Shown: piece by piece, positions 9,644 to 28,989 of the stretch
How the letters are laid out: every line of letters begins with the position of its first letter
Numbering within the stretch: the first letter of the stretch is position 1
DNA from: a virus
Virus record (IMG/VR): IMGVR_UViG_3300047546_000224
Span: 1-30,128 of that record
Strand: one strand, 5' to 3'
DNA length: 30,128 nt
Position numbers and translations under genes: made by a program
Notes under the pieces: model-generated
What the model saw: the letters and a program-made list of their open reading frames with translations, nothing else
Database searches by the model: none
Told to the model about the DNA's origin: nothing

Positions 9644-9995
9644 TAACCCGATGCCGATTCGAAAGACGGTATTTAATAAGGAACATATTAATAAAGTTGT
9701 AAAGAGAGAATTTACAACCTTTACACAACCTGTACCTGAAGATACTCAATTAACAATAGAAGACTTCTTTGCGTTATATGAAGAACTCTTCTACGAAATA
9801 CCTATTAACGGTGAAGCCGGAACCCATGAATACTTAGTTAAAAGAAGCTCAGAATTATATAAACTAAACGACTCGACTGACGATATACAACCTCTTTTAG
9901 ATGAAATAACTAATTTAAGAGCACAGATTATAGATAACGAAACCGAGATTATTGCATTACAAGAACAAGTAGCAAATCAGAATGTCAAAAACTAA
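9636..9995 (+). CDS. small baseplate-block protein with C-terminal coiled coil
   Basis: 119 residues overlapping the previous gene by 8 bases and the next by 14. The N-terminal part is mixed ([20 protein letters not shown]...), the middle acidic and aromatic ([15 protein letters not shown]), and residues about 82-116 form a clean coiled coil ([30 protein letters not shown]). Such short linkers sit beside the large baseplate protein in contractile phages. It may trimerise with its neighbour; no family name is supported. Confidence 0.7.
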
Positions 9996-12900
9996 TTACA
10001 TAGTATCGAAGGGGTTTCCTGACGAATTAGAAATATATACTAGGAACCTAAATCCTAAAGATAAAGCCTTAGTAGATAGTTTCTACCTCAACAGTAGCTT
10101 TAAGCCTGATAAGCATACAATAGAAATGCACGTATATGGGCTTAATGATGAACGTCTGTTTTCTGTTCCTTCTTACTTCCCAGAATACTCTAATGTAACT
10201 TACACACAATATCAAGCAGGTAAAATATCTGAGATAAATATATCTCCAGAAGTTGATGCTCAACAGTTAGGGTTTAATTACGGTCAAGTTAGTATTCTAT
10301 ATAACTTCCTTAGTAATCTCTATAGCGATTCAAATTTTATATTTGAAGGAAATTTCTTCATTGAAGATATCTCTGCAGACCGTACTGAGATCTTAGCATT
10401 AAGTAATGAGCTATCTCTTACAGATTTAATACGATTTACATCAGACTTAAAAAGAAAGTTAGATACATTATCTTATTTTCAAGACTTTAGAGTAAATTTT
10501 GGAGATAATAAGTTACTACTTGGAATAAATGTAGATCTTATAGATTATAGAGGAGGTAAAGCTCTTGCTATAAAATTATACGAACCTCTTCCTGAAGAGT
10601 TTGAAATAAAAGATACCTTCAGGGTAGTAGAAATAATATCAGATTCAATTTCATTTGAAATAGATACAGAAACTATACCTGAAGAAATAGTATACCCTAA
10701 TTTAAAAGGTCCTAATTTTGATATAGAATTAGTAGAGGATAATAATAACCCTACTGGTTTCTTTAATTATAATGAATTATTTAGCTATCCAGTTACTAGT
10801 TCATACTACGAATTATATTCTTTATTTGAAGAAAGTAGTGCTCAAATTAGCATAGATCATAGTAACTATTCAGACTTTATTAATTTTTCATCAGCAGAAG
10901 AACGATTAAGAAATTTTAAGTACAAAATAGATTTAATTAAGTCTTACGAAACTTCATTACAGACATTAAGCAACACCGGATATACTAGATTCGGTATTAC
11001 AGGAAGTAGAGATTATTATGAATCGTTAATTGAAGGTATAATAAATAATTTTGATCACTACGATAGATTTTTATACTTTGAAAGCGGTTCTAATAGTTGG
11101 CCAAAATCTAATAATACAAGACCGTATACGAACCAAGCTAGTACAACAGTACAAGCTACTAACTGGTATACTAATCAACTTTCAATCGCTTCAAATTTTG
11201 ACGTAAGTAATTTAAACGCACTTACTAATACTCTACCAATCTTTTTAAGAGAAGATACAGATAATAACCCTGCTCTTATATTCATCAATATGCTAGCACA
11301 GCATTTTGATAACATATGGATATACCAGAAAGCAGTTAGTGATAAGTATGATGCAGATAACAGAATAAACTTTGGTATATCAAAAGACTTAGTTAGAACT
11401 ACCTTAGAAAACTTTGGAGTTAAACTATATAATAGTAATTTTAACTTAGAGTCTATCTTTGGAGCTTTTATAGGAGAATCTTATATATCAGGTAGTGAAC
11501 AGATAAATAACTACCAAGTAATTACATCTGGTTCTACAAACGCATATCTACAACCTATGCCGTTTGATAACTATCAAAAAGAAATCTACAAAAGAATATA
11601 CCACAACTTACCTCTACTTACAAAATCAAAAGGTACAGAGAGAGGCTTGAGAGCTTTAATTAACTCATTTGGTATACCTTCTCAGATATTAGAAATAGGA
11701 ATCGCTGGAGGTCAGAAAATAGGACCAGGTTTCTACGGACCTACTCAATTACATTATAGTTCATCTTTGAAATTAAGAACTGATAATGATGGTACTATTG
11801 TAGCAGGAGATACATTATCTGGTTATACTTCTATTGTTAGAAGAGAGTATGAATACTCAGATGATTTAAACTTTATAGAAGTAGGATTAGCTCCTTCTAA
11901 AAACATAGATAATTATATAGTTTCTCAAAGTGCTGTATTAGGTTTCTCTAACTTTAACATTGATGATTATATCGGGGACCCTAGAGATTCTTATAAATCA
12001 GAATATACATCTCTAGAGAAACATCGTAAAGTAGTATTAGGTAATTTAGATCGATACGATTTAATGGACTACATTAGATTGATTCGTTTCTTTGATAATG
12101 CTTTATTTAGAATTGTAAAAGATTTTATACCAGGTAGATCAACAGCAATTACCGGTATAATAATTAAACCGCATAAACTAGAAAGAAATAAAGCAAAGCA
12201 TGTAAGTGTTAGTACTATCTTCCAGGATTATTCTGGATCGATAGATACTGCTTTTATGGTTGGAACCCATGGAGGATCCTATACTCAGTTAGTAGAAAGA
12301 AGTACAGCATATGCAGAACGAATAGTAGTTCCTTCTGGATCTGCCATGACTTTTAGACATAACTATGAAGAACCTAAATTTAACGGAGAATTAAGCGGAA
12401 GTAGAATAAGAATATCAAATGGAGAATTAAACAGAGGTAATAAGGTTAAGAAAACATCTCAACCTGAATTAGCGTTTAATATAACATTCCTTAACGCATC
12501 TAATACTATACCTAGAGATTGTACAATTCAATTTACTGCGATACAAGTCACACCTGCACCTACCGCAGCTCCAACAGCTGCTCCAACTCCTGCACCTACC
12601 GCAGCTCCAACAGCAGCACCTACACCTGCACCAACAGCAGCTCCTGTAACTCCTAGTCCTACTGCCGCTCCTACTCCTAGTCCAACAGCTAGTCCAACTG
12701 CTGCTCCTACTACACCATCTCCTACCCCTAGTCCGACAGCAGCACCGGTAACTCCTAGTCCGACAGCATCACCAACAGCTAGTCCTACACCTAGTCCTAC
12801 ACCTGAACCTACTCCTAGTCCGACTGCTGAACCAACAGCAGCACCAGTTTCATCTCCAACAGGAGGTGGCGGTGGCGGAGGTGGCGGAGGTTGTCTACTT

Positions 12901-13374
12901 GAAGGAACCCCTATACTAATGGCAGACGGATCTACTAAAAATATTGAAGATTTAACTATTGGAGATCAAGTTAAAAACTTTAGCATAGAAGGTTTAGATA
13001 CTAATGGAGATGCTTATAAAACTTGGAATACAGGAGAAATAAACATAACACCTTCTACTTCTATAGTAACAGCTATATATCCAGATACGTTCACTAGTTA
13101 TTATAGAATCAACAACCTCTTGAATATAACATTTGAACACCCAGTATTAGTTAAACAAGGTAATGAATATAGCTTTAAAGCAGTAGCTGCACTTAGAGTA
13201 GGAGACCATTTATTAAATAAAGACGGGGAGTGGATTGAAATCTTAACTAAGGAGTTGATAACAGAAACTGTCGATGTATATAATATTAACGTAGAGAGTC
13301 AAGATACTTATTTCGCTAACGGTATATTAGTTCACAACCTAGAAAACGCTCCTAACGAAAAACAAATTACATAA
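9982..13374 (+). CDS. large baseplate protein with Pro/Thr/Ala stalk and C-terminal Hint domain
   Basis: 1130 residues in three parts. Residues 1-850 are a tail/baseplate structural protein; [20 protein letters not shown] near 417 and the [17 protein letters not shown] motif at about 550 resemble the P2 gpI-type tail protein family. Residues 857-960 are a P/T/A/S-only stalk, and 961-970 are ten glycines. Residues 971-1119 are a Hint module: Cys971 opens [20 protein letters not shown], block B has ITFEHPVLV (TxxH), and the end is [21 protein letters not shown] with His1118-Asn1119. Only 11 residues follow, starting with Leu. Self-cleavage at Gly-Cys and after Asn is plausible; extein ligation is not. 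Position after gp6 suggests a wedge or tail-periphery role. Confidence 0.85.
12550..12861 (+). repeat. Pro/Thr/Ala/Ser stalk-coding repeat
   Basis: This segment codes for PTAAPTPAP- and PTPSPTASP-type repeats and contains a perfect 26-base direct repeat (12553-12578 and 12589-12614). Alternating GCA/GCT and ACA/ACT/ACC codons elsewhere show the peptide is better conserved than the DNA. It is markedly richer in C than the genome and prone to length change by recombination. The ten-glycine codon run follows at 12862-12891. Confidence 0.85.
12892..13338 (+). other. Hint (hedgehog/intein-type) self-processing module inside the 9982 gene
   Basis: 149 codons from Cys971 to Asn1119. It has the N-terminal nucleophile Cys, the TxxH of block B and the terminal His-Asn pair, and no room for a homing endonuclease. 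The residue after Asn is Leu, not Cys, Ser or Thr, which fits a bacterial-intein-like cleaving domain rather than a splicing intein. Confidence 0.8.
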
Positions 13375-17275: not shown

Positions 17276-18337
17276 ATGGCTATAACATTTAGAGCAAATA
17301 AAGGACAAGCATTAACCTACAGAGAAATGGATACCAACTTAGGGTCCTATTTCTATTCTAGCTCTTTAACAAAAGAATCTTGGGGAACCGGAGACGCAAC
17401 AAGAACAACTGTAAATTTTGCTACCTTGTATTACACAGGTAGTACTTTAATTCCTTGGAATCTTTCTCCCCATCAAATACCTTTACATGCAACAGGTAGT
17501 AGATCTATTAACGGTTCTGTACAGTATGCAAGTTCAAGCTTACAAGCAGGAGCACCAGACTTTTTATTTAACCCAGTTAATGGATATGTAGGTATTAAAA
17601 AAACAGCTACATCAAAAATAAATGCTCCATTAGATATTAACGGTAATGCAATTATAACTGGCTCACTAACAGTAACAGGAGATGCAGTAGTATTTGGTAG
17701 AATTACAGCTCAAGAATTCCATACAGAGTTTGTAAATGCATCAGTAGTATATGAAAGCGGATCTACAAAATGGGGTGATACTACAAATGATTTTCACGAC
17801 GTAACCGGTAGTTTAAACATTACAGGAAGTTTAACTTTACAAGGTCCGTTTGTAGTAAAAGGTGATACTAAATTTGGAGTTGATTGTAATAGTAATCATG
17901 AAATAACAGGAAGCTTAAGAGTAAATTCTAGCTGCGTTAGACAACATTATATTAGTTCCGGAAGCTTCGGTATTAATACCAAAAATCCTCAATATGATTT
18001 ACATGTTATAGGTCAAATACAAGCTTCAAGAAACATATTAGCCTTCTCTGACGCACGATTAAAAGATAATGTACAACCTATTCAAGGTAGCTTAGAAATC
18101 ATCGATGCGATAGGAGGATACACATATACACGTAATGACTGGAATGATCTACCTGGTGTAGGAACTATTGCTCAAGAAGTGAGAGCAGTTCTTCCGGACG
18201 CTGTACATAGTGACGAAGAAGGGTATTTAAGTGTCGACTATAATGCATTAACAGCTGTTCTACTCGAAGCTGTGAAAGCTCAAAATGTATTGATACAGAA
18301 TTTACAGGATAGAGTAGCACAATTAGAAAATAAATAG
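17276..18337 (+). CDS. tail fibre protein with C-terminal peptidase S74 chaperone
   Basis: 353 residues. The N-terminus (MAITFRANKGQALTYREMD) is a virion-attachment module also found in the next gene. The shaft is made of beta repeats such as GSLNITGSLTLQG. Residues 258-353 are a peptidase S74 intramolecular chaperone: SDARLKDN at 258-265 holds the Ser-Asp pair used for self-cleavage, followed by YTYTRNDWNDLPGVGTIAQE and SVDYNALTAVLLEAVKAQN, ending in a coiled coil (LIQNLQDRVAQLENK). Known S74 domains trimerise and fold the fibre, then cut themselves off. This is probably a receptor-facing fibre or spike. Confidence 0.9.
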   Translation: MAITFRANKGQALTYREMDTNLGSYFYSSSLTKESWGTGDATRTTVNFATLYYTGSTLIPWNLSPHQIPLHATGSRSINGSVQYASSSLQAGAPDFLFNPVNGYVGIKKTATSKINAPLDINGNAIITGSLTVTGDAVVFGRITAQEFHTEFVNASVVYESGSTKWGDTTNDFHDVTGSLNITGSLTLQGPFVVKGDTKFGVDCNSNHEITGSLRVNSSCVRQHYISSGSFGINTKNPQYDLHVIGQIQASRNILAFSDARLKDNVQPIQGSLEIIDAIGGYTYTRNDWNDLPGVGTIAQEVRAVLPDAVHSDEEGYLSVDYNALTAVLLEAVKAQNVLIQNLQDRVAQLENK

Positions 18338-20852: not shown

Positions 20853-21224
20853 ATGAAACTTACAAACATTATTTTAGAGAAAGAAGAAAAAGTTGACGAA
20901 CTTAATGCCAAGCAACTATTCACAGCAGCAGGTATTGGATTAGCTACTTTAGGAGCACCTAATATGGGGAAATCTCAACAAAAAGAACCAACACCAATTT
21001 CTCAAACTACTCAACAAAAAGATACTACTATAACTGGCTTTGGTCTAGGTAAATCACCTGATCTAAGAATTGCTCGACAAATGGCAAAGATGAGAGCAAC
21101 TGCTGACTTAATGCAGAAAATGAAAGTACAGACTCTCAAAGCAGGTATAGAAGTAAAGAGTGAAAAGACTTTTGAAACAAGCAATGGATACGAAGTAGAA
21201 GTTACTGTTGCAATATCTCAATAA
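20853..21224 (+). CDS. E9-tagged small protein with LPP20-like domain
   Basis: 123 residues. It begins with the shared tag MKLTNIILE followed by K10. A short hydrophobic stretch follows at about 27-40 (LFTAAGIGLATLGA), then a polar Q/T linker. Residues about 62-123 (GFGLGKSPDLRIARQMAKMRATADLM..., ending EVEVTVAIS) look like the G-x-G-x-S-x-x-x-x-x-A-x-x-x-A-x-x-x-A pattern of LPP20-type domains, usually in lipoproteins. There is no lipobox. The gene lies 3 bases after the DUF5872-like gene. If the tag is a capsid-targeting sequence this would be an internal head protein. Confidence 0.7.
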   Translation: MKLTNIILEKEEKVDELNAKQLFTAAGIGLATLGAPNMGKSQQKEPTPISQTTQQKDTTITGFGLGKSPDLRIARQMAKMRATADLMQKMKVQTLKAGIEVKSEKTFETSNGYEVEVTVAISQ

Positions 21225-21225
21225 T

Positions 21226-21537
21226 ATGAAACTTAAAGATATATTAATAGAAGGAAAAGCATTTGATGAGTTTGCAGAAACTCGAATGAAAGGAGCAGAA
21301 AAGATAGCTGATAATGCTAAGGAGAAAGGTGGACCTTCTATGTTAACCTATCACCACTTTAAGGTAAAACTTCCTTACTACGAGAAAGCTAGTAAAGGAG
21401 ATTTTGACTTTGAAGCAGCAAAAAAAGAATTCAAAGAAACTTTAAGCAAGATATCCTTAGAAATGGACCAAACTACTTTCCAGAGAGAGGTAGGGCGTCT
21501 AGAAGTACTAGGAGAGTTAATTATCAAGAATGACTAA
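21226..21537 (+). CDS. E9-tagged small phage protein of unknown function
   Basis: I place the start at the ATG at 21226, one base after the previous stop, giving MKLKDILIE-G and a 103-residue protein. A start six codons earlier is open but would run back into the previous gene and mask the tag. The body is helical: ETRMKGAEKIADNAKEKGG, then MLTYHHFKVKLPYYEKASKG and a final FQREVGRLEVLGELIIKND. I recall similar small proteins in marine phages without function. It overlaps the next micro-ORF by 8 bases. Confidence 0.75.
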   Translation: MKLKDILIEGKAFDEFAETRMKGAEKIADNAKEKGGPSMLTYHHFKVKLPYYEKASKGDFDFEAAKKEFKETLSKISLEMDQTTFQREVGRLEVLGELIIKND

Positions 21538-21628
21538 TAGAGAAAAGAAAGAAGCTAATCGTAAAAAGATAGCCAAAGCCACTGTTAAACAGCAACAGAA
21601 AAAAGGCAACTACAAAAAGAAGACTTAG
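21530..21628 (+). CDS. 32-residue highly basic micro-protein
   Basis: ATG at 21530, overlapping the previous stop, and TAG at 21626-21628, one base before the next ATG. The peptide has 11 Lys, 2 Arg and only 2 Glu, ending QQQKKGNYKKKT. The exact fit between two genes with overlapping or abutting ends supports a real gene. Such a peptide would bind DNA or RNA non-specifically; a DNA-condensing head component is possible but unproven. Confidence 0.6.
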   Translation: MTNREKKEANRKKIAKATVKQQQKKGNYKKKT

Positions 21629-21629
21629 T

Positions 21630-21890
21630 ATGCTTCCATTTGAAGAAGAATTAAAAGAAGGTTATTACATTAGGACGTTTGATTCTAAGACTCCTGTAGA
21701 CGAATTCGTATGGCATAGAGACCAAGAAGATCGATGGATAGAACCTATTGGAGAAACTGATTGGAGATTCCAATACGATAACGAAGTTCCGATTCCTCTA
21801 CAAAAGCTATTTATTAAAGCAGGAACCTATCATAGAGTAATTAGAGGTACCGGCACATTAACCTTAAAGATTATTAAACAAAATGGCTAA
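21630..21890 (+). CDS. small cupin-like phage protein
   Basis: 86 residues. The sequence VWHRDQEDRWIEPIGETDWR, then FQYDNEVPIPLQKLFIKAGTYHRVIRG and TLTLKI, follows the beta pattern of a one-domain cupin-like fold, with histidines in WHRD and YHRV placed like metal ligands. Similar WHRDxxDR proteins occur in T4-like marine phages. No reaction can be assigned. It begins one base after the basic micro-ORF and overlaps the next one by 8 bases. Confidence 0.75.
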   Translation: MLPFEEELKEGYYIRTFDSKTPVDEFVWHRDQEDRWIEPIGETDWRFQYDNEVPIPLQKLFIKAGTYHRVIRGTGTLTLKIIKQNG

Positions 21891-22011
21891 AGCAAAATCA
21901 GCAGGAAGTTCTCAAAAAGTAAGCTTCGGTAAAAGAAGTCAAGGTAAACCTAAAAAGAGTTACGGCCCTAAAGAGGAAAAACCTAAAAAGTATAGAGGTC
22001 AAGGACGATAA
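21883..22011 (+). CDS. 42-residue basic protein, KYRGQGR tail
   Basis: ATG at 21883 overlaps the cupin-like gene, and the TAA at 22009-22011 shares its last base with the ATG of the kinase-like gene. The peptide has 11 Lys, 3 Arg and 2 Glu, with a repeated K-P-K-K-(S/Y) motif (QGKPKKSYG, EKPKKYRGQGR). I recall similar KKYRGQG-ending small proteins in T4-like phages. It is probably a nucleic-acid-binding or virion component. The tight overlaps on both sides make it a firm call despite its size. Confidence 0.7.
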   Translation: MAKAKSAGSSQKVSFGKRSQGKPKKSYGPKEEKPKKYRGQGR

Positions 22012-22442
22012 TGAAACTATCGAGAATCATATTAGAAGGTCCAATTGGATATGATCCAGAATATAATGCGATTATAGATAAGATAAAGGACAAAGGCGGT
22101 AAGTATTTAGGTGCTGGAGATTACGGTGCTGTTTATTTACTAGGAGGAAGAGCTGTTAAAGTAACAACAGATGAGATAGAGATAGAACACGCCTTAAAAC
22201 TTCTAGGAAAAAAGACAAAACACTTTGTACATATACACGACGTAAAGGAAATGAATCCTAAATTAGGAGTTATTACGATGGATATAATGGCACCTCACAG
22301 AGGAGAAGTACCAGAAGAGTTTTTAGATGCTTTAGAAAAAGAAGCTAAGAAGTTAGGAATAGATCCTGACGAACTAGATATCCGTCCAGATAACTTTATG
22401 GAAGACCCATCTACAGGTAAAATAAAGATGACGGATGTTTAA
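22011..22442 (+). CDS. E9-tagged truncated protein-kinase-like protein
   Basis: 143 residues. After the tag MKLSRIILE-G come the landmarks of a protein kinase: glycine loop GAGDYGAV at 34-41, AVKV with Lys50, a hinge-like ITMDIM near 88-93, a catalytic-loop match DIRPDN at 123-128 (cf. D-L-K-P-E-N of HRD loops) and TDV at 141-143 with Asp142 where DFG begins. The 14-residue distance from Asn128 to Asp142 is close to that of true kinases. The chain stops right there, with no activation segment or C-lobe helices. It could bind nucleotide; activity is doubtful. Confidence 0.75.
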   Translation: MKLSRIILEGPIGYDPEYNAIIDKIKDKGGKYLGAGDYGAVYLLGGRAVKVTTDEIEIEHALKLLGKKTKHFVHIHDVKEMNPKLGVITMDIMAPHRGEVPEEFLDALEKEAKKLGIDPDELDIRPDNFMEDPSTGKIKMTDV

Positions 22443-22454
22443 AAAAAGTTAAAC

Positions 22455-22461
22455 TATTTAT
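22455..22461 (+). promoter_or_regulatory. TATTTAT element, candidate late promoter
   Basis: TATTTAT in context AACTATTTATAG in the 39-nt gap before the 22482 gene, 20 nt before its ATG. Confidence 0.4.
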
Positions 22462-22481
22462 AGAATATAAACAGAACAGAA

Positions 22482-22955
22482 ATGAGTAATAATTTTGATT
22501 TAAGAAAATTCTTAACAGAGAATAAATTAACTTCTACTGCTAAAGCTATAACAGAGTGGGATGATAAATCTGTTAAAGATTACGCTGATGCAATGTCAAC
22601 CGCTTTTGGTAATAAACCTAAAGATAAAGATAAAGAAAAGTCTTCTGTAAACGAATACGAACATCACTACAGAAAAGTAGGAGGAGAGTGTCGTAAGTAT
22701 AACGACGAAGGTGATTATACAGTAGTTAGTATGCACTACTGCCAGTATAATGAAGCAGAAGAAGAAAAACAAGAAGCTCCAATCAGTGAAATGAATGGCG
22801 GATATGTTGAAGCAATGGGACCAGATTTTGACGAAGCTGTTGATTTACTAAGCCATGCTTGGAATCAATGGAAAAACGGTCCGGCAACTGAAGATGAAGA
22901 TATTGAACCTGCAAAAGCAGATATACTAGAGTATGTTAAATCTCTATTAAAGTAA
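22482..22955 (+). CDS. acidic accessory protein starting NFDLRKFLTENKLT
   Basis: 157 residues, strongly acidic. The N-terminus (MSNNFDLRKFLTENKLT) is a helical leader I recall from several marine-phage proteins; its LTE-N could be a variant cleavage site, but it is not the E9 tag. The middle holds a YEHHYRKVGGECRKYNDEGD segment with two nearby cysteines (ECRK, HYCQ). The C-terminus is helical (FDEAVDLLSHAWNQWKNGP..., ADILEYVKSLLK). No enzyme family is recognised. It ends the run before the terminator at 22984. Confidence 0.7.
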   Translation: MSNNFDLRKFLTENKLTSTAKAITEWDDKSVKDYADAMSTAFGNKPKDKDKEKSSVNEYEHHYRKVGGECRKYNDEGDYTVVSMHYCQYNEAEEEKQEAPISEMNGGYVEAMGPDFDEAVDLLSHAWNQWKNGPATEDEDIEPAKADILEYVKSLLK

Positions 22956-22983
22956 TATTTCCCGAATATTGAAATAACTAAAG

Positions 22984-23010
22984 AAAGGCTTGCTTATGTG
23001 AGCCTTTTTT
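22984..23010 (+). terminator. intrinsic terminator
   Basis: AAAGGCT (22984-22990) pairs with AGCCTTT (23001-23007) across a 10-nt loop, followed by a T-run to 23010. It is the best intrinsic terminator in the window and ends the 19622-22955 transcript. Its right arm and T-tract lie inside the spacer of the next promoter. Confidence 0.8.
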
Positions 23011-23022
23011 CGTATATTAAGG
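22990..23022 (+). promoter_or_regulatory. Bacteroidota-type promoter overlapping the terminator
   Basis: TTG at 22990-22992, 20 nt, then TATATTAAGG at 23013-23022. It shares TTGCT, the CG before the TA and TTAAGGTA with the promoter at 792. It drives the primase gene with a very short leader. Confidence 0.6.
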
Positions 23023-23038
23023 TAATAGTTACGTGTCT

Positions 23039-23965
23039 ATGGAATATACTTTTCTTTTAGGAGCAGTTGAGAACGTTTTAGGTAAGAGTTATAAAAGAGC
23101 AAAAGACAATTATGCATTTACTTGTCCGTTTTGTAATCATAGAAAACCTAAGCTGGAAATCAACTTGAATACAAACGACAAGGGTGAAAATCCTTGGGAA
23201 TGTTGGGTATGTGAAACTAAGGGACGTACAATAAGGTCTTTATTAAAGCAGCTTAAAATAAGCGGACCTCAAGCACAAGAAGTTTTACAATACATAAAGA
23301 AAGGAGAGGAAGTTGAATACCAGGTAGTAAAGACTATAGAACTACCTAAGGAATTCCAACCATTATTTTCTGCACCTACTACATCTTTCTCAGCTAATAT
23401 AGCTAGAAAGTATCTTTACGATAGAGGTATTACAGATAATGATATTATGAAATATAACATAGGTTATTGTATCGCTGGCGAATTCAACGATAGAATAATT
23501 ATTCCATCATATGATCAAAACAATCAATTAAACTTTTACGTAGCTAGGGCTTTCAATAGAAGTTATGCTAAGTATAAAAACCCTGAAGTATCAAAAGACA
23601 TTATAGTCTTTGAAAATTTAATTAACTGGAATCAACCTATAATAATCTGTGAAGGAGTATTCGATGCTATGGCTATTCGAAGAAACGCTATACCGATTTT
23701 AGGAAAAAATATATCAAAAGCTTTACTCAAGAAAATAGTTTCAAGTAAAGTAAAAGAAATTTACATAGCTTTAGATAAAGACGCTTTGAAAAAAGCTGTT
23801 AAGTTTTGTGAACAGTTTATTAGTATGGGGAAAAAGGTATACTTAGTAGATATGGAAGAGAAAGATCCAAGTGAAATGGGTTTTCAATCATTCACCAACC
23901 ACATACAAGATGCAGAAGAACTAGATCTTAGTTCTCTCTTGCAGTATAAATTAAACTTATTATGA
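23039..23965 (+). CDS. gp61: DNA primase, gp61-like
   Basis: 308 residues from the ATG at 23039; a GTG two codons earlier (23033) is a possible alternative start. The N-terminal zinc-binding domain has CPFC at 29-32 and CWVC at 55-58. A toprim domain follows: the conserved Glu in IIICEGVFDAMAI, IYIALDKDAL with the DxD-like acidic pair, and VDMEEKDPSEMG. The order matches T4 gp61 and DnaG-type primases but the protein is short, with no helicase domain. It would make RNA primers at the phage fork with a gp41-type helicase not in this window. It overlaps the nuclease gene by 4 bases. Confidence 0.88.
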   Translation: MEYTFLLGAVENVLGKSYKRAKDNYAFTCPFCNHRKPKLEINLNTNDKGENPWECWVCETKGRTIRSLLKQLKISGPQAQEVLQYIKKGEEVEYQVVKTIELPKEFQPLFSAPTTSFSANIARKYLYDRGITDNDIMKYNIGYCIAGEFNDRIIIPSYDQNNQLNFYVARAFNRSYAKYKNPEVSKDIIVFENLINWNQPIIICEGVFDAMAIRRNAIPILGKNISKALLKKIVSSKVKEIYIALDKDALKKAVKFCEQFISMGKKVYLVDMEEKDPSEMGFQSFTNHIQDAEELDLSSLLQYKLNLL

Positions 23966-24744
23966 TAAAACAAGGAGATAATCTTTTAGTAGAAAGTACT
24001 AAAAATAATCTATCCTACAATCCTGATTTAAAACAAATCAATTTTTTAGATAGAAGAGTCTATAAACGTTCAGAAGGAGTATACTACCCTTCGGTAACAA
24101 CAATACTTCAGTATTTACCTAAGAATAAGTTCTTTGAAAATTGGCTCAAAGACGTAGGACATAATGCAGAAATCATTATGCAAAAAGCAGGTAAAGAAGG
24201 TACTCAAGTTCATAAAGCTATAGAGATATTAGTAGAAGGAGGAGAAGTTAGCTGGATGGATGATTACGGTAATGCAAAATACTCTCAGATTGTATGGGAG
24301 ATGATATTAAAATTTCATGAGTTTTGGTCTACCTATAAACCTAAATTAATATCAACAGAGCAATTTGTATACTCAGATGAATATAAGTATGCAGGTACTG
24401 CTGATTTAGTTATCGAGATGGGAGGAGAGACTTGGCTATTAGATATTAAGACATCTAACGCTTTACATAAGAGTTATGATTTACAATTAGCAGCTTATGC
24501 AAAAGGATTTAAAGAATGTAAAAATGTAGATATTCAACGTACAGGAGTACTTTGGTTAAAAGCAAATACAAGAAGTGCTTCTAAAAAAGAAGGAGTATAC
24601 CAAGGTAATGGTTGGCAGATCAAAGTAGTTGACGAAATAGATTATAATTTCGATTTGTTTAAAACAGTATATAAACTTTACGAATTGGAGAACCCAACTA
24701 CCGAACCTATTTACTCAGCATACCCGACTAGTATAAAACTTTGA
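23962..24744 (+). CDS. PD-(D/E)XK nuclease, RecB/Cas4-like
   Basis: 260 residues. The RecB-like nuclease core is clear: SVTTILQYLP near 44, a GTQVHKAIE helix (His84), Glu133, GTADLVI with Asp148, LLDIKTS with Asp161 and Lys163, then QLAAYA (Gln175). These are the metal-binding and catalytic residues of PD-(D/E)XK exonucleases. No cysteine cluster for an iron-sulfur centre is visible, so it is not a complete Cas4. The ATGA overlap with the primase suggests coupled expression and a role in phage DNA replication, recombination or host DNA breakdown. Confidence 0.88.
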   Translation: MIKQGDNLLVESTKNNLSYNPDLKQINFLDRRVYKRSEGVYYPSVTTILQYLPKNKFFENWLKDVGHNAEIIMQKAGKEGTQVHKAIEILVEGGEVSWMDDYGNAKYSQIVWEMILKFHEFWSTYKPKLISTEQFVYSDEYKYAGTADLVIEMGGETWLLDIKTSNALHKSYDLQLAAYAKGFKECKNVDIQRTGVLWLKANTRSASKKEGVYQGNGWQIKVVDEIDYNFDLFKTVYKLYELENPTTEPIYSAYPTSIKL

Positions 24745-24751
24745 TATTTAT
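24745..24751 (+). promoter_or_regulatory. TATTTAT element, candidate late promoter
   Basis: TATTTAT in context GATATTTATAAG, 20 nt before the start of the P-loop kinase gene at 24772. It overlaps the stop codon region of the nuclease gene. Confidence 0.4.
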
Positions 24752-24771
24752 AAGTAAAGAACTAAACATAG

Positions 24772-25710
24772 ATGAAACTTTCACAACTTATATTAGAAGC
24801 TAAAGCTAGACCAAAAGCCGTTATTATGGCCGGAGGAGCTGGCGCCGGTAAGAGTTACCTTCTAAATCAATTAGATCTAGGAGGGTTAACTATTTACAAT
24901 CCTGATAAGTATGTAGAAGATAAAGAACATCCTTACTACGGTAATTTATCAGCTGCATCTACTCAAGTTACACAAGACGTAGAAGATGCTTCTAATAATA
25001 AAGAGAGTTTTATTTGGGATACTACAGCTTCTAATTCTAAAAAAGTACAAGAACTTTTAGGAAAAGGATATGATGTGTTTATGGTAATGGTATATACTCA
25101 CCCGTTAATTTCCTTTATTTCGAACTTCGAAAGAGAAAGACAGATACCGAAAACCGCAGTATTCTCTACTTGGAGAGATGTTTATCAGCAAATAGGGTAC
25201 TACAAAGGATTATTAAAAGATAACTTTGCATTATTTGCCAATGATAGAGGAGGTAAATACGATAAAGAAATTAAAGAATTTAACGTAGCTGCTAGAAATG
25301 GTTCAAACGGAATCTCAGACTACCTTGCTAAGTACATGGAAGATCATGGAGGAGCTGAAGGTTTTATTTCTACTTTTAGAAAACCTTACGATATTGAAGA
25401 TAAAATTGCTGCTGATGCTTATAGAAAAGAAACAGCTAACATAGATTATAATAGAGAAGATGAATCTATGGATAAGCAGTTAAAAAAATATTGGATGGGC
25501 TTCTATGAAAAAAACGGAACAGGTCCTGGTGATGATAAGATGAAAAAGAAAGTTGCTAGCATAACAAGTGTTAGACAAAAAGCTGAAGAAAAAAATAAAG
25601 AAGTATTAGATAATATTGCCGATATGATTCATAATGCTAAGTTTACAGAACAGTTAAAAGGTTCTACAGTAGCAGAAATTGATCAGAAAGTACAAAACTT
25701 TTTAGCATAA
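24772..25710 (+). CDS. E9-tagged P-loop kinase, zeta-toxin-like
   Basis: 312 residues. The tag MKLSQLILE-A is followed by a P-loop domain: AVIMAGGAGAGKSYLL with Walker A at 21-28, a YNPDKYVED segment where zeta-type kinases bind substrate, and FIWDTTASNSKKVQELLGKG (Walker-B-like D and an SN/T pair). Arg-rich FERERQIPKT and FSTWRDVYQQIGYYKGL segments could hold lid arginines. The C-terminal third is helical and charged. Zeta toxins phosphorylate UDP-sugars; other relatives phosphorylate nucleic acids, and the substrate here is not deducible. It overlaps the next gene by one base (TAATG). Confidence 0.78.
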   Translation: MKLSQLILEAKARPKAVIMAGGAGAGKSYLLNQLDLGGLTIYNPDKYVEDKEHPYYGNLSAASTQVTQDVEDASNNKESFIWDTTASNSKKVQELLGKGYDVFMVMVYTHPLISFISNFERERQIPKTAVFSTWRDVYQQIGYYKGLLKDNFALFANDRGGKYDKEIKEFNVAARNGSNGISDYLAKYMEDHGGAEGFISTFRKPYDIEDKIAADAYRKETANIDYNREDESMDKQLKKYWMGFYEKNGTGPGDDKMKKKVASITSVRQKAEEKNKEVLDNIADMIHNAKFTEQLKGSTVAEIDQKVQNFLA

Positions 25711-26939
25711 TGGCAGTAGTACTATACCCAGGAGCATTTAAACCACCACATAGAGGACATTTTGAATTAGTAAAAGCTTTACTTAAAGGTTCTGCTCAAG
25801 CTAGGGTTTATAGTTTAGATAATCAACAAGATGCTTCTGATAAGTTACTTCAAGGAAAAGGTGAAAAGATAGACCCTATTACAGGAGTAATTATATACAT
25901 TGGAAGTAGTATACGAAACGGTATAGATAAAGATGATTCAAAAGCTATTTGGGATATATACAAAAAATATCTTCCAGGTAACGTAGATATAATCGTAGCA
26001 GATGCTAACCCGATGTTAGTGGCTAGAAGTCATGCTAAAAATAGACCTACTGAAAAGTTCTATGCAGTAACAGGTTTTAGATCTTCTGAAGACTTTCAGG
26101 ATTTAAAACGTATTAGTGCATTTAAAGATCTAGATAACGTACAAGGGTTAGTGGTAAGTGGCGGAGAAAATTCAAATGTTAGAGCTACTAGTTTTAGAGA
26201 CGCAATTTTAAACGGAAGTCTTGATGATGTATTAGATTTTTTTCCTAAAGAGTTATCAAGAGAAGAAATATTAAAAATAGTAGAGATGTTAAAACAAGGT
26301 ATAATAGCCGAAATGATGGCTGAAAAAATAGAAGATGTATATTCAAGCTGGTTTGATAAAGAAACTATCACAGAAAGTTCTTCTGGGATACCTTTACAAA
26401 ATACAGGTATAGTTTCTTCTGAAGATCGTGCTGCTTTAGCAGATCAATTAGAAGCAATCAAATCTGTTATAGATGATAGATTCGAAGCTGAAATGAACGG
26501 TGATCGTATAGTTGTTAAAACGAAAGGAGAATCTCCGTATAATACTTCAGATATGCCTAATAACTACGACTACGGTAATCATTTTGCTGACCTTTTAGAG
26601 TATATGATTAGAGAAGGTTTAACAGTCCAACCATTACCTGAAGTAAAAATACGTAGAGATATAGCTGAAGCAGAAAACTTCTTCGGTAAAACAGCATACT
26701 ATAACCCAGGAGATAAAGAGATTGTTTTATACGCTGCTGGAAGACATCCTAAAGATGTTACTAGGTCTTTTGCTCATGAAATGATTCATCATATGCAAAA
26801 TCTAGAAGGTAGATTAGGTAATAGAGGAACAACAGATACTACTGCAGATAAAGAATTAGCAGCATTAGAAGAAGAAGCATACTTAAAAGGTAATATGATT
26901 TTCCGTAATTGGGAAGATTCTAAAAAAAATAAAAAATAA
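25710..26939 (+). CDS. nucleotidyltransferase fused to an HExxH metallopeptidase-like domain
   Basis: 409 residues. Residues 1-190 are a HxGH nucleotidyltransferase of the cytidylyltransferase/NMNAT type: VLYPGAFKPPHRGHFELVKA with HRGH at 14-17, an FYAVTGFRSSEDFQDLKRI core and NVRATSFRDAIL, where the ISSTxxR-like motif is expected. Residues about 290-409 contain RSFAHEMIHHMQNLEG with HEMIH at 356-360, a zincin-type metal site, and acidic residues downstream (ALEEEAYLKG) that could supply a third ligand. The linker is helical. It carries no E9 tag but lies between two tagged genes. The partner reactions of such a fusion are unknown. Confidence 0.82.
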   Translation: MAVVLYPGAFKPPHRGHFELVKALLKGSAQARVYSLDNQQDASDKLLQGKGEKIDPITGVIIYIGSSIRNGIDKDDSKAIWDIYKKYLPGNVDIIVADANPMLVARSHAKNRPTEKFYAVTGFRSSEDFQDLKRISAFKDLDNVQGLVVSGGENSNVRATSFRDAILNGSLDDVLDFFPKELSREEILKIVEMLKQGIIAEMMAEKIEDVYSSWFDKETITESSSGIPLQNTGIVSSEDRAALADQLEAIKSVIDDRFEAEMNGDRIVVKTKGESPYNTSDMPNNYDYGNHFADLLEYMIREGLTVQPLPEVKIRRDIAEAENFFGKTAYYNPGDKEIVLYAAGRHPKDVTRSFAHEMIHHMQNLEGRLGNRGTTDTTADKELAALEEEAYLKGNMIFRNWEDSKKNKK

Positions 26940-26946
26940 AGGTTAT

Positions 26947-27474
26947 ATGAAAAGTTTATTTGAGTTACTAGAAGTAGAAAAAGAAAAACCACAGTATCAA
27001 ATCTACTGTGATATGGATGGAGTATTGACAGACTTTGAAGAAAGGTTTGAACATTATTCTGGCATGAAACCAGATCAGTATGAGGCAAAACACGGTGCAG
27101 CCGGCTTCTGGGAATTAATAGATAATAAAGTAGGTGTTAAGTTTTGGGTAGGTATGGGTTGGATGAGTGGAGGTAAAGAACTTTGGAATTTTATTTCAAA
27201 GTACGACGCTAAGATATTAAGTTCTCCTTCCCGACATGATAATTCGAGATTAGGTAAAAACTTATGGGTAAAAAATAACTTATCACCAAAACCTAAGGTT
27301 ATATTTGCATATTCAGCAGATAAACAGAGATATGCAAATGCTAATTCAATTTTAATTGACGATAAAAAATCAAATATAGAACAGTGGGAAGCAGCAGGTG
27401 GTATAGCTATCAGATGTCTTCATGGAAATATAGCACCGGTTATAGCAAAATTAAAAGAACTTGGTTATGAGTGA
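26947..27474 (+). CDS. E9-tagged HAD-superfamily phosphatase (5'-nucleotidase-like)
   Basis: 175 residues. The start MKSLFELLE-V keeps Glu at position 9 of the tag. The HAD core follows: YCDMDGVLTDFEE with the nucleophile Asp22 and Asp24, ILSSPSRHD (motif II Ser region), a KPKVIF strand with lysine, and ILIDDKKSNIEQWEAAGG (motif IV acidic pair). Size and motifs resemble 5'(3')-deoxyribonucleotidases of phages, which dephosphorylate nucleotides; other small phosphate esters are possible. It starts 7 bases after the fusion gene. Confidence 0.82.
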   Translation: MKSLFELLEVEKEKPQYQIYCDMDGVLTDFEERFEHYSGMKPDQYEAKHGAAGFWELIDNKVGVKFWVGMGWMSGGKELWNFISKYDAKILSSPSRHDNSRLGKNLWVKNNLSPKPKVIFAYSADKQRYANANSILIDDKKSNIEQWEAAGGIAIRCLHGNIAPVIAKLKELGYE

Positions 27475-28045
27475 GACCTTATTAAAAAAGGAATTTAAAC
27501 AAAGCGATGTACAAAGGGTTAGGAATTTAGTAAATAAAGATTATACTGCTAAGACTAAGTCAAGTGTAGGTTATCAAAAAGAAACTAAACGGTACAAAGA
27601 AGGAGATGTTTGGGAAGAAGCAGGTAAGCAATGGACTATTAAAAACGGAATAAGACAGAATGTAACTAAGTTAGATTCTGCCAAGAAAGCTGTTAGAGTA
27701 CCGTTGAGATGTCCTAAATGTAGTGGTTCTATGGAACATCATCTACATAAAAAAATGTATAGTATTCATAAAATGTGCTTTGACTGTACAATACAATATG
27801 AAGATACATTAAAGAAGACTGGGTTATACGAAGCATATCAAAAGAGAATGATGCAAGGTAATATGCAAGCTTTTGCTATAGATATAGAAGCTTGGGTTTT
27901 AGATTCTTTAAACGATAAAGACAGTTTCGTTACTGAGCAGGGGGATATAGAAGATTGGAAGAGTAATACTTCTAAGTTTAAGAAAGAAGTTTTAGATAAG
28001 CTACAAGAGTACTTAAAACACTTGAAGAGTAATATAGATAGTTAA
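27467..28045 (+). CDS. zinc-ribbon accessory protein
   Basis: Start placed at the ATG at 27467, overlapping the previous stop by 8 bases; a TTG two codons upstream is less likely. 192 residues. A four-cysteine zinc site is visible: CPKC at 82-85 and CFDC at 104-107, separated by 18 residues (GSMEHHLHKKMYSIHKM). The N-terminal 80 residues are basic and helical with VWEEAGKQWTIKNGIRQNV; the C-terminus is acidic and helical. I recall similar CxxC-RCFDC proteins in marine phages, unnamed. Nucleic-acid binding is a reasonable but unproven guess. Confidence 0.75.
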   Translation: MSETLLKKEFKQSDVQRVRNLVNKDYTAKTKSSVGYQKETKRYKEGDVWEEAGKQWTIKNGIRQNVTKLDSAKKAVRVPLRCPKCSGSMEHHLHKKMYSIHKMCFDCTIQYEDTLKKTGLYEAYQKRMMQGNMQAFAIDIEAWVLDSLNDKDSFVTEQGDIEDWKSNTSKFKKEVLDKLQEYLKHLKSNIDS

Positions 28046-28046
28046 C

Positions 28047-28053
28047 TATTTAT
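28047..28053 (+). promoter_or_regulatory. TATTTAT element, candidate late promoter
   Basis: TATTTAT in context AACTATTTATAG, immediately after the zinc-ribbon gene and 29 nt before the ATG at 28083. Confidence 0.4.
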
Positions 28054-28082
28054 AGATAACCTTTTTTATTTAATTTTATATA

Positions 28083-28430
28083 ATGACACAAAAAGAGCTA
28101 CTAGAAGACGTATTATCAGAACTTAAGCATATAAAAACACATATGCCTAACGGTGAGTTGAAGATAATGCTCGAAGATATGAAAGATGTTAAAGACGACA
28201 TTTCAGAGCTAAAGTTTATGCTACTAAACCCAGAAGACGGTCTTGTTGTTAAGACTAATAAAAATACAGATTTCCGTCTTTCACTCCAATCTAATGAAAA
28301 AGAATATCAAGTTAAGATGCAAGAATTAGAAGAGTTAAAGAAGTGGAAAAATGGAGTAAATAAAGCCTTATGGATTTTATTTGCAGGTCTAGCAGCTTTA
28401 TTATTTGAAATGTTACAAAACCATAAATAA
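28083..28430 (+). CDS. coiled-coil protein with C-terminal membrane anchor
   Basis: 115 residues. The chain is coiled coil (ELLEDVLSELKHIKTHM, MLEDMKDVKDDISELKFML, VKMQELEELKKWKNGVNK) and ends with one membrane helix (ALWILFAGLAALLFEML, about 94-110) and a short basic tail. This coil-plus-C-terminal-TM plan resembles XhlA-type lysis accessory proteins, but no endolysin or holin is adjacent. It could also anchor a phage complex to the host membrane. It is followed by one base and the next ATG. Confidence 0.72.
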   Translation: MTQKELLEDVLSELKHIKTHMPNGELKIMLEDMKDVKDDISELKFMLLNPEDGLVVKTNKNTDFRLSLQSNEKEYQVKMQELEELKKWKNGVNKALWILFAGLAALLFEMLQNHK

Positions 28431-28431
28431 T

Positions 28432-28989
28432 ATGAAACTTATTGATATACTTTTAGAAGCCAAACAAATTCAGTATACCAAGCCTAACTTTGAAAACGAA
28501 TGGGAAGAGGCACTTAGATATCCGGAATTTGAAGACATGGGTAAAGAGAAGTGGATAGAGATAGCTAAACAAGGAAAGCCTATCGCATTCTCAAAAATAA
28601 AAGATATATTAGGAAACGTAGATTTAGATTTTGACGGGTTAGAAGAACCTAAAAAAGAGAGATTTAAACAAGCGTTTGAAAAAGGAGTTATAGAAATGTC
28701 TATCGTTGTTAAATTTGGTGAAAACGATTACGACCTAGTAGCAGGAAATACTAGACTTTCAGGATTAGTAAAAAACGGAATTGACCCTCAACTATGGGTA
28801 GTAGATATATCTCACTTAATGGAGATGTTAATGGAAGGGATAGATGATCCTGTTAAACCTGGTATACTAAAGAAAAGATTAGGTACTTTATCTTGTTCTA
28901 AAGTAAGAGCAGAGAAAGCTAAGTTAGAAGATAAAGGAACACACTTTGCGAAAGCATTACAGAGATATTTAAACTACCATTGTAAATGA
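28432..28989 (+). CDS. E9-tagged ParB-like protein
   Basis: Start chosen at the ATG at 28432, one base after the previous stop, giving MKLIDILLE-A and 185 residues; an open frame nine codons upstream would hide the tag. Residues about 85-110 (IEMSIVVKFGENDYDLVAGN TRLSGLVKNG) match the ParB/sulfiredoxin-like nucleotide-binding core, with GNTRL in place of GERRL. A separate C-terminal module (ILKKRLGTLSCSKVRAEKAK LEDKGTHFAKALQRYLNYHC) is one I recall at the end of other phage proteins. ParB-like folds bind CTP or ATP and some are nucleases; activity is unknown. Confidence 0.75.
   Translation: MKLIDILLEAKQIQYTKPNFENEWEEALRYPEFEDMGKEKWIEIAKQGKPIAFSKIKDILGNVDLDFDGLEEPKKERFKQAFEKGVIEMSIVVKFGENDYDLVAGNTRLSGLVKNGIDPQLWVVDISHLMEMLMEGIDDPVKPGILKKRLGTLSCSKVRAEKAKLEDKGTHFAKALQRYLNYHCK

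What the first reader, a model, noticed from the sequence alone, without database searches (positions are those of the whole stretch)
22011..22442. Protein-kinase-like gene that stops at the DFG aspartate
Glycine loop, Lys50, D-I-R-P-D-N catalytic loop (123-128) and Asp142 are all present with kinase-like spacing, yet the chain ends one residue after that Asp, lacking activation segment and C-lobe. It carries the E9 tag. It could be a minimal nucleotide-binding fold, one half of a split kinase, or a decoy. T7 gp0.7 and T4 Alt are precedents for phage enzymes that modify host proteins early in infection; Alt is delivered from the capsid.
Basis: partly seen in the sequence, partly recalled or inferred. 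Interest (0 to 1): 0.62.

Follow-up and report, generated by a model that had tools for sequence, protein, structure and literature searches.

The report
Tiny phage kinase with packaging tag
A marine T4-like phage family carries a 143-residue protein with just the ATP-binding half of a protein kinase, ending one residue after a key catalytic aspartate, and with a front-end tag of the kind T4 uses to load proteins into its head; it may be a very small kinase injected into the host with the DNA.

Summary
ORF 22011-22442 (143 aa) has the glycine loop, K50, D-I-R-P-D-N (123-128) and D142, and stops one residue later. This is not a truncated copy: all 70 distinct full-length relatives (IMG/VR, including Flavobacterium phage Immuto) end ...D(V/I)-stop, K50/E57/N128/D142 are invariant, and dN/dS is 0.008-0.026 against close relatives. 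AlphaFold2 (pLDDT 85; 88 for the Immuto form) gives a kinase N-lobe, alphaE, catalytic loop and beta7-beta8; every listed Foldseek PDB match is a protein or pseudo-kinase. By profile comparison it is related to T7 gp0.7 kinases, whose conserved kinase region ends at the same place. About a quarter of relatives (Immuto clade) lack the catalytic Asp123. The 'E9 tag' fits a T4-type capsid-targeting propeptide: (L/I)-x-E at residue 9/10 in 70/70, similar tags on a dozen or more unrelated protein families, and a gp21-type prohead protease in Immuto. No adjacent C-lobe gene was found. Best reading: a very small phage kinase-fold protein, packaged and injected, that modifies or binds host proteins. 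Fold is strongly supported, packaging is inferred, catalysis is open. New variant of a known kind.

The parts
22011..22442 (+). minimal kinase-fold protein, 143 aa
   Evidence: ORF; fold; family of 70 full-length relatives
22011..22037 (+). N-terminal capsid-targeting-like propeptide MKLSRIILE, predicted cut after E9 (I-L-E)
   Evidence: (L/I)-x-E at residue 9/10 in 70/70 relatives; pLDDT under 50 for residues 1-13; T4 gp21 rule L/I-X-E (PMC9026906)
22107..22136 (+). glycine-rich loop LGAGDYGAVY (33-42), beta1-beta2
   Evidence: G36, D37, G39 70/70; strands 31-35 and 39-44
22158..22160 (+). K50, beta3 lysine
   Evidence: 70/70; also in T7 and Cd1 kinases
22179..22181 (+). E57, candidate alphaC glutamate
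   Evidence: 70/70; lies in helix 55-64; the salt bridge to K50 is inferred
22377..22394 (+). catalytic loop D123-I-R-P-D-N128
   Evidence: N128 70/70, D123 51/70
22434..22442 (+). D142 (DFG-Asp equivalent), V143, stop
   Evidence: D142 70/70 with the same C-terminus; the model's last residue 143 aligns to CDK2 residue 146
22482..22955 (+). next gene: tagged (MSNNFDLRKFLTENKL) protein whose C-terminal half is homologous to the protein next to the Immuto prohead protease
   Evidence: 64% over 61 aa, E 1e-26; not a C-lobe
20853..21224 (+). another protein with the tag MKLTNIILE
   Evidence: tag clusters
21226..21537 (+). another protein with the tag MKLKDILIE (internal Met start)
   Evidence: tag clusters
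24772..25710 (+). Zeta-toxin-like P-loop protein with the tag MKLSQLILE
   Evidence: PF06414 E 3e-10; tag clusters
26947..27474 (+). 5'-nucleotidase-like protein with a related N-terminus MKSLFELLE
   Evidence: phrog_2643 E 1e-23
28432..28989 (+). another protein with the tag MKLIDILLE (internal Met start)
   Evidence: tag clusters

Best explanation
A very small protein-kinase-fold protein of the T7 gp0.7 lineage that the phage loads into its head and injects. Late in infection it is made with a 9-residue capsid-targeting propeptide (MKLSRIILE), joins the prohead core and is cut after E9 by a gp21-type prohead protease (inferred from motif, modularity, a protease in Immuto and the T4 precedent). 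The mature ~134-residue protein is ejected with the DNA. It binds Mg-ATP with the glycine loop, K50, E57, N128 and D142 (fold shown by prediction, binding inferred) and, in clades that keep D123, phosphorylates host proteins without its own activation segment or C-lobe, as T7-type kinases are thought to do to disarm defences or redirect the host (inferred).
For: Fold: AF2 pLDDT 85.3/pTM 0.79 and 88.1/0.81 for the Immuto form, five models agreeing; all listed PDB Foldseek hits are kinases or pseudokinases, E about 1e-5 to 4e-4; VIA Z up to 10.3, end of model = CDK2 residue 146. Homology: phrog_15752 (T7 kinase) E 2.8e-4 for the window protein and matched by 19/37 relatives; hhalign with T7-type kinases about 96%, P 1e-9 to 1e-8, over residues 12-142, against 0.0-0.3% for reversed or shuffled controls. 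Selection: dN/dS 0.008-0.026, identical C-terminus 70/70. Tag: (L/I)-x-E at 9/10 in 70/70 over 28 tag variants; MKLxxI(I/L)xE found 85 times against 0.2 expected, on 12 unrelated clusters; Immuto carries Peptidase_S77 and Gp23; T4 rules. T7-type kinase JSS1_004 phosphorylates defence proteins (PMC12345140).
Against: No virion proteomics or biochemistry exists for these phages here. The Immuto clade has lost Asp123 while keeping the gene. The effector kinase SteC loses activity when cut shortly after its DGD motif, although a crystal of such a fragment holds ATP (PMC13395416). T7-type kinases have extra N-terminal and insert sequence, and at least 12 residues after the Asp, which this family lacks. 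The window contig itself does not include head genes.
Confidence: 0.5

Rival explanations
1. Packaged, injected pseudokinase: it binds ATP but does not transfer phosphate; it works as a decoy or allosteric binder of a host protein.
For: Asp123 is lost in 19/70 relatives while K50, E57, N128 and D142 never change; no substrate platform; a SteC fragment ending near its DGD motif is inactive yet co-crystallised with ATP; the Immuto form keeps the fold.
Against: 51/70 keep the catalytic Asp, as do all T7-type kinases compared.
Confidence: 0.3
2. Non-protein or non-phosphoryl transferase with a kinase fold: nucleic-acid kinase (the archaeal kinase ArkI is a compact structural match) or an AMP transferase of SelO type in the Immuto clade.
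For: TkArkI 7vnx gives the longest alignment (130 residues, Z 8.0) of the Immuto model; loss of the HRD Asp with K, N and D kept recalls SelO (own knowledge).
Against: 7vnx is tied with many protein kinases; profile homology is to T7 protein kinases.
Confidence: 0.08
3. Kinase-fold protein that is not packaged; the N-terminal tag serves another purpose (for example docking to a shared phage partner).
For: No virion data; tags are present on many genes outside the head cluster.
Against: (L/I)-x-E rule, length 9-10, modularity, S77 protease, and a tagged protein homologous to one beside the protease.
Confidence: 0.1
4. One half of a split kinase whose C-lobe is encoded next door.
For: The chain ends exactly before the activation segment.
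Against: The downstream gene is a DnaG-like primase in most loci or varying tagged proteins in others; no constant partner.
Confidence: 0.02

Closest known systems
T7 gp0.7 / JSS1_004 protein kinases (phrog_15752)
   Same: Kinase motifs in the same order and detectable profile homology; conserved kinase region ends at ITDP, the DFG equivalent; in Cd1 the whole protein ends 12 residues later, in SFPH2 22.
   Different: T7-type proteins add N-terminal sequence, inserts and mostly a shutoff domain, are expressed early, and T7's own N-terminus lacks the (L/I)-x-E tag at 9/10; this family stops one residue after the Asp and lies behind tail genes.
T4 internal proteins IPI-III and Alt (capsid-targeted, gp21-processed)
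   Same: N-terminal propeptide of about 10 residues ending (L/I)-x-E in a T4-like phage lineage with a gp21-type protease.
   Different: Cargo is a kinase fold; packaging not shown experimentally.
Minimal effector kinases OspG and SteC
   Same: Reduced C-lobe kinases delivered into a host cell (PMC13395416).
   Different: SteC keeps part of the C-lobe (alphaF); this family keeps none after the DFG Asp; no sequence relationship tested.
Canonical Hanks-type kinases (CDK2, PKR, Stk1)
   Same: N-lobe, alphaE, catalytic loop, beta7-beta8 superpose, Z about 9-10.
   Different: No activation segment, no APE, no alphaF-alphaI.

Membership tests
Protein kinase fold (N-lobe and catalytic loop) | beta1-beta3, alphaC, beta4-beta5, alphaE, catalytic loop, beta7-beta8 | tested here: met
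   AF2 and Foldseek/VIA
Protein kinase fold (N-lobe and catalytic loop) | Lys, alphaC Glu, Asn and DFG-Asp of the ATP/Mg site | tested here: met
   K50, E57, N128, D142 in 70/70
Canonical Hanks-type protein kinase | catalytic HRD Asp | tested here: inconclusive
   present in the window protein and 51/70, absent in the Immuto clade
Canonical Hanks-type protein kinase | activation segment, APE, alphaF-alphaI C-lobe | tested here: not met
   chain ends one residue after D142 in all 70; no neighbour supplies it
T7 gp0.7 kinase family | profile similarity over the kinase domain | tested here: met
   phrog_15752 in 19/37; hhalign about 96% with clean controls; Immuto clade alone aligns over only 40 N-lobe columns (71.6%)
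T7 gp0.7 kinase family | C-terminal basic shutoff domain | tested here: not met
   absent; also absent in Cd1 and SFPH2
T7 gp0.7 kinase family | demonstrated protein phosphorylation | not testable with these tools
   needs an assay
T4-type capsid-targeted internal protein | N-terminal propeptide of about 10 aa ending (L/I)-x-E | tested here: met
   70/70; T4 rule from PMC9026906
T4-type capsid-targeted internal protein | phage encodes a gp21-type prohead protease | tested here: met
   in the relative Immuto: PF03420 E 8.9e-35; the window fragment does not reach its own head genes
T4-type capsid-targeted internal protein | present and cleaved in mature virions | not testable with these tools
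   no proteomics found

The most novel reading that the evidence does not exclude
A widespread family of virion-delivered, catalytically active protein kinases reduced to about 134 residues, with nothing beyond the DFG aspartate, showing that phosphotransfer to protein needs no activation segment or C-lobe, and with a sister lineage turned into an ATP-binding pseudokinase.
Probability: 0.3. Interest if true: 0.8.

Novelty: new variant of a known kind. Interest (0 to 1): 0.58.

Why it matters
The C-lobe is generally considered necessary for a protein kinase to hold its substrate. A family under strong selection that consistently ends one residue after the DFG aspartate makes the question 'how little kinase is enough' directly testable. 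A recent paper calls the T7-type kinase almost exclusive to Autographiviridae (PMC12345140), and this extends a relative of it to T4-like phages. If packaged, it would be a kinase acting from the first moment of infection, before any phage gene is expressed, parallel to T4 Alt. The tag also offers a way to read the injected protein set of a large uncharacterised phage group from sequence alone.

Tried and rejected
Single-protein searches of Pfam and PDB sequences found no kinase (best hit is an unrelated adenovirus core protein below cut-off); members of the family gave only weak Pkinase hits (best E 0.064). The genome-contig scan found no relative in bacterial genomes, so no host or prophage origin is shown. 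No T7 gp0.7 structure was found in the PDB by sequence. A search of viral contigs with the Cd1 kinase gave nothing. Tag enrichment by the simple motif alone in the whole Immuto proteome was modest (26 against 15 +/- 3.7); the stronger evidence is modularity and conservation. Truncation by assembly error or frameshift: rejected, 70 relatives end alike. Split kinase: rejected. The Nature Microbiology 2024 and T7 autophosphorylation papers are not held.

Full report
OBSERVATION. The ORF at 22011-22442 is real: 143 aa, ATG start, TAA stop, on the same strand as its neighbours. It lies behind tail/baseplate genes and before a DnaG-like primase, in the same order as in Flavobacterium phage Immuto, so the window is a fragment of a distant Immuto-like T4-type myovirus.

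FAMILY. Scans of IMG/VR gave over 100 loci and 72 distinct proteins, 70 of them full length, down to about 50% identity. K50, E57, N128, M130 and D142 are invariant in the 70; D123 is kept in 51 and is Ser, Arg or Leu in the Immuto clade. Every full-length member ends with D(V/I) and stop, one residue after D142. dN/dS between the window gene and its close relatives is 0.008-0.026. The stop is therefore a conserved feature.

FOLD. AlphaFold2 on four sequences gave pLDDT 85.3, pTM 0.79 (the five models ranged from 48 to 85), with residues 1-13 disordered and the order helix, beta1-beta3, alphaC, beta4-beta5, alphaE, beta7, beta8, end. The Immuto form with 37 sequences gave 88.1 and five agreeing models. 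All listed Foldseek PDB matches of both are protein kinases or pseudokinases. VIA-align gives Z up to 10.3, above the 7-8 typical of models without a clear match, and puts the last residue at CDK2 residue 146, which is the F of DFG, so D142 corresponds to D145 (CDK2 numbering is own knowledge). In BFVD the hits are a family member, then T7-type phage kinases and several 168-199 aa phage proteins.

RELATION TO T7 gp0.7. phrog_15752, the T7 kinase family, matches the window protein (E 2.8e-4) and 19 of 37 relatives. Profile-profile comparison with nine T7-type kinases gives about 96% over residues 12-142, against 0.0-0.3% for reversed or column-shuffled controls. The Immuto clade alone aligns only over 40 N-lobe columns (71.6%). 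In these kinases the conserved kinase region also ends at the DFG-equivalent (ITDP): Caulobacter phage Cd1 has 12 residues after that Asp and Shigella phage SFPH2 has 22, the others a shutoff or other domain. So a kinase that stops near this point is not unique; this family is the shortest version seen here. The T7-type kinase JSS1_004 phosphorylates Ser/Thr/Tyr of many host and defence proteins (PMC12345140).

TAG. T4's gp21 protease cuts after L/I-X-E, and the first 10 residues of IPIII are what is needed to direct a protein into the head (PMC9026906; PMC10229621). In all 70 members an L/I-x-E triplet ends at residue 9 or 10, across 28 different tag sequences. MKLxxI(I/L)xE occurs on 12 unrelated protein clusters and M(E/S)NNFDLKKFL(V/T)ENKL on 14; the first pattern is found 85 times against 0.2 expected after shuffling, though homologues are counted repeatedly. 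Immuto encodes a Peptidase_S77 prohead protease and Gp23, and the tagged gene right after the kinase is homologous to the Immuto protein beside that protease. Packaging is thus a well-founded inference, not a demonstration.

MECHANISM. Shown: fold by prediction, invariant ATP/Mg residues, conserved end, tag pattern. Inferred: prohead packaging, cleavage after E9, injection, ATP binding, phosphotransfer, host target. Against catalysis: the effector kinase SteC is inactive when cut shortly after its DGD motif, although such a fragment was crystallised with ATP (PMC13395416), and one clade here has lost the catalytic Asp. For catalysis: most members keep it, and the T7-type relatives are active kinases. 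I weigh an active injected kinase at about 0.5 and an ATP-binding pseudokinase effector at about 0.3.

SPLIT KINASE. The gene downstream is a DnaG-like primase in most loci, or one of several unrelated tagged proteins. No constant C-lobe candidate exists next to the gene.

VERDICT. A sound observation. A new, very small variant of the T7-type phage kinase fold, in a new phage lineage and very likely a head-packaged protein.

Noticed in passing
window 20853-28989 and L001-L123, L131-L134: Two N-terminal tags (MKLxxI(I/L)xE and M(E/S)NNFDLKKFL(V/T)ENKL) are shared by at least 26 otherwise unrelated protein clusters, suggesting a large set of head-packaged proteins in Immuto-like phages.
   Followed up: partly
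window 24772-25710: Zeta-toxin-like P-loop protein (PF06414) carrying the same tag, MKLSQLILE; possibly another injected phosphotransferase.
   Followed up: partly
window 22442-23033 and the equivalent spot in relatives: Variable insertion spot between kinase and primase genes: empty in many loci, holding different tagged proteins of about 92-400 aa in others.
   Followed up: partly
window 9982-13374: Large tail protein with a [10 protein letters not shown] repeat and a C-terminal intein/Hedgehog-like (Hint) stretch beginning [13 protein letters not shown] and ending VHN.
   Followed up: no
window 25710-26939: Nucleotidyltransferase-like start joined to a metallopeptidase-like part (weak Pfam DUF6782); the Immuto counterpart is a 907-aa protein with a weak Peptidase_M91 match.
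   Followed up: no
window 17276-18337: C-terminal SDARLKDNVQPI...GTIAQEV stretch resembling a self-cleaving S74 chaperone of tail proteins.
   Followed up: no
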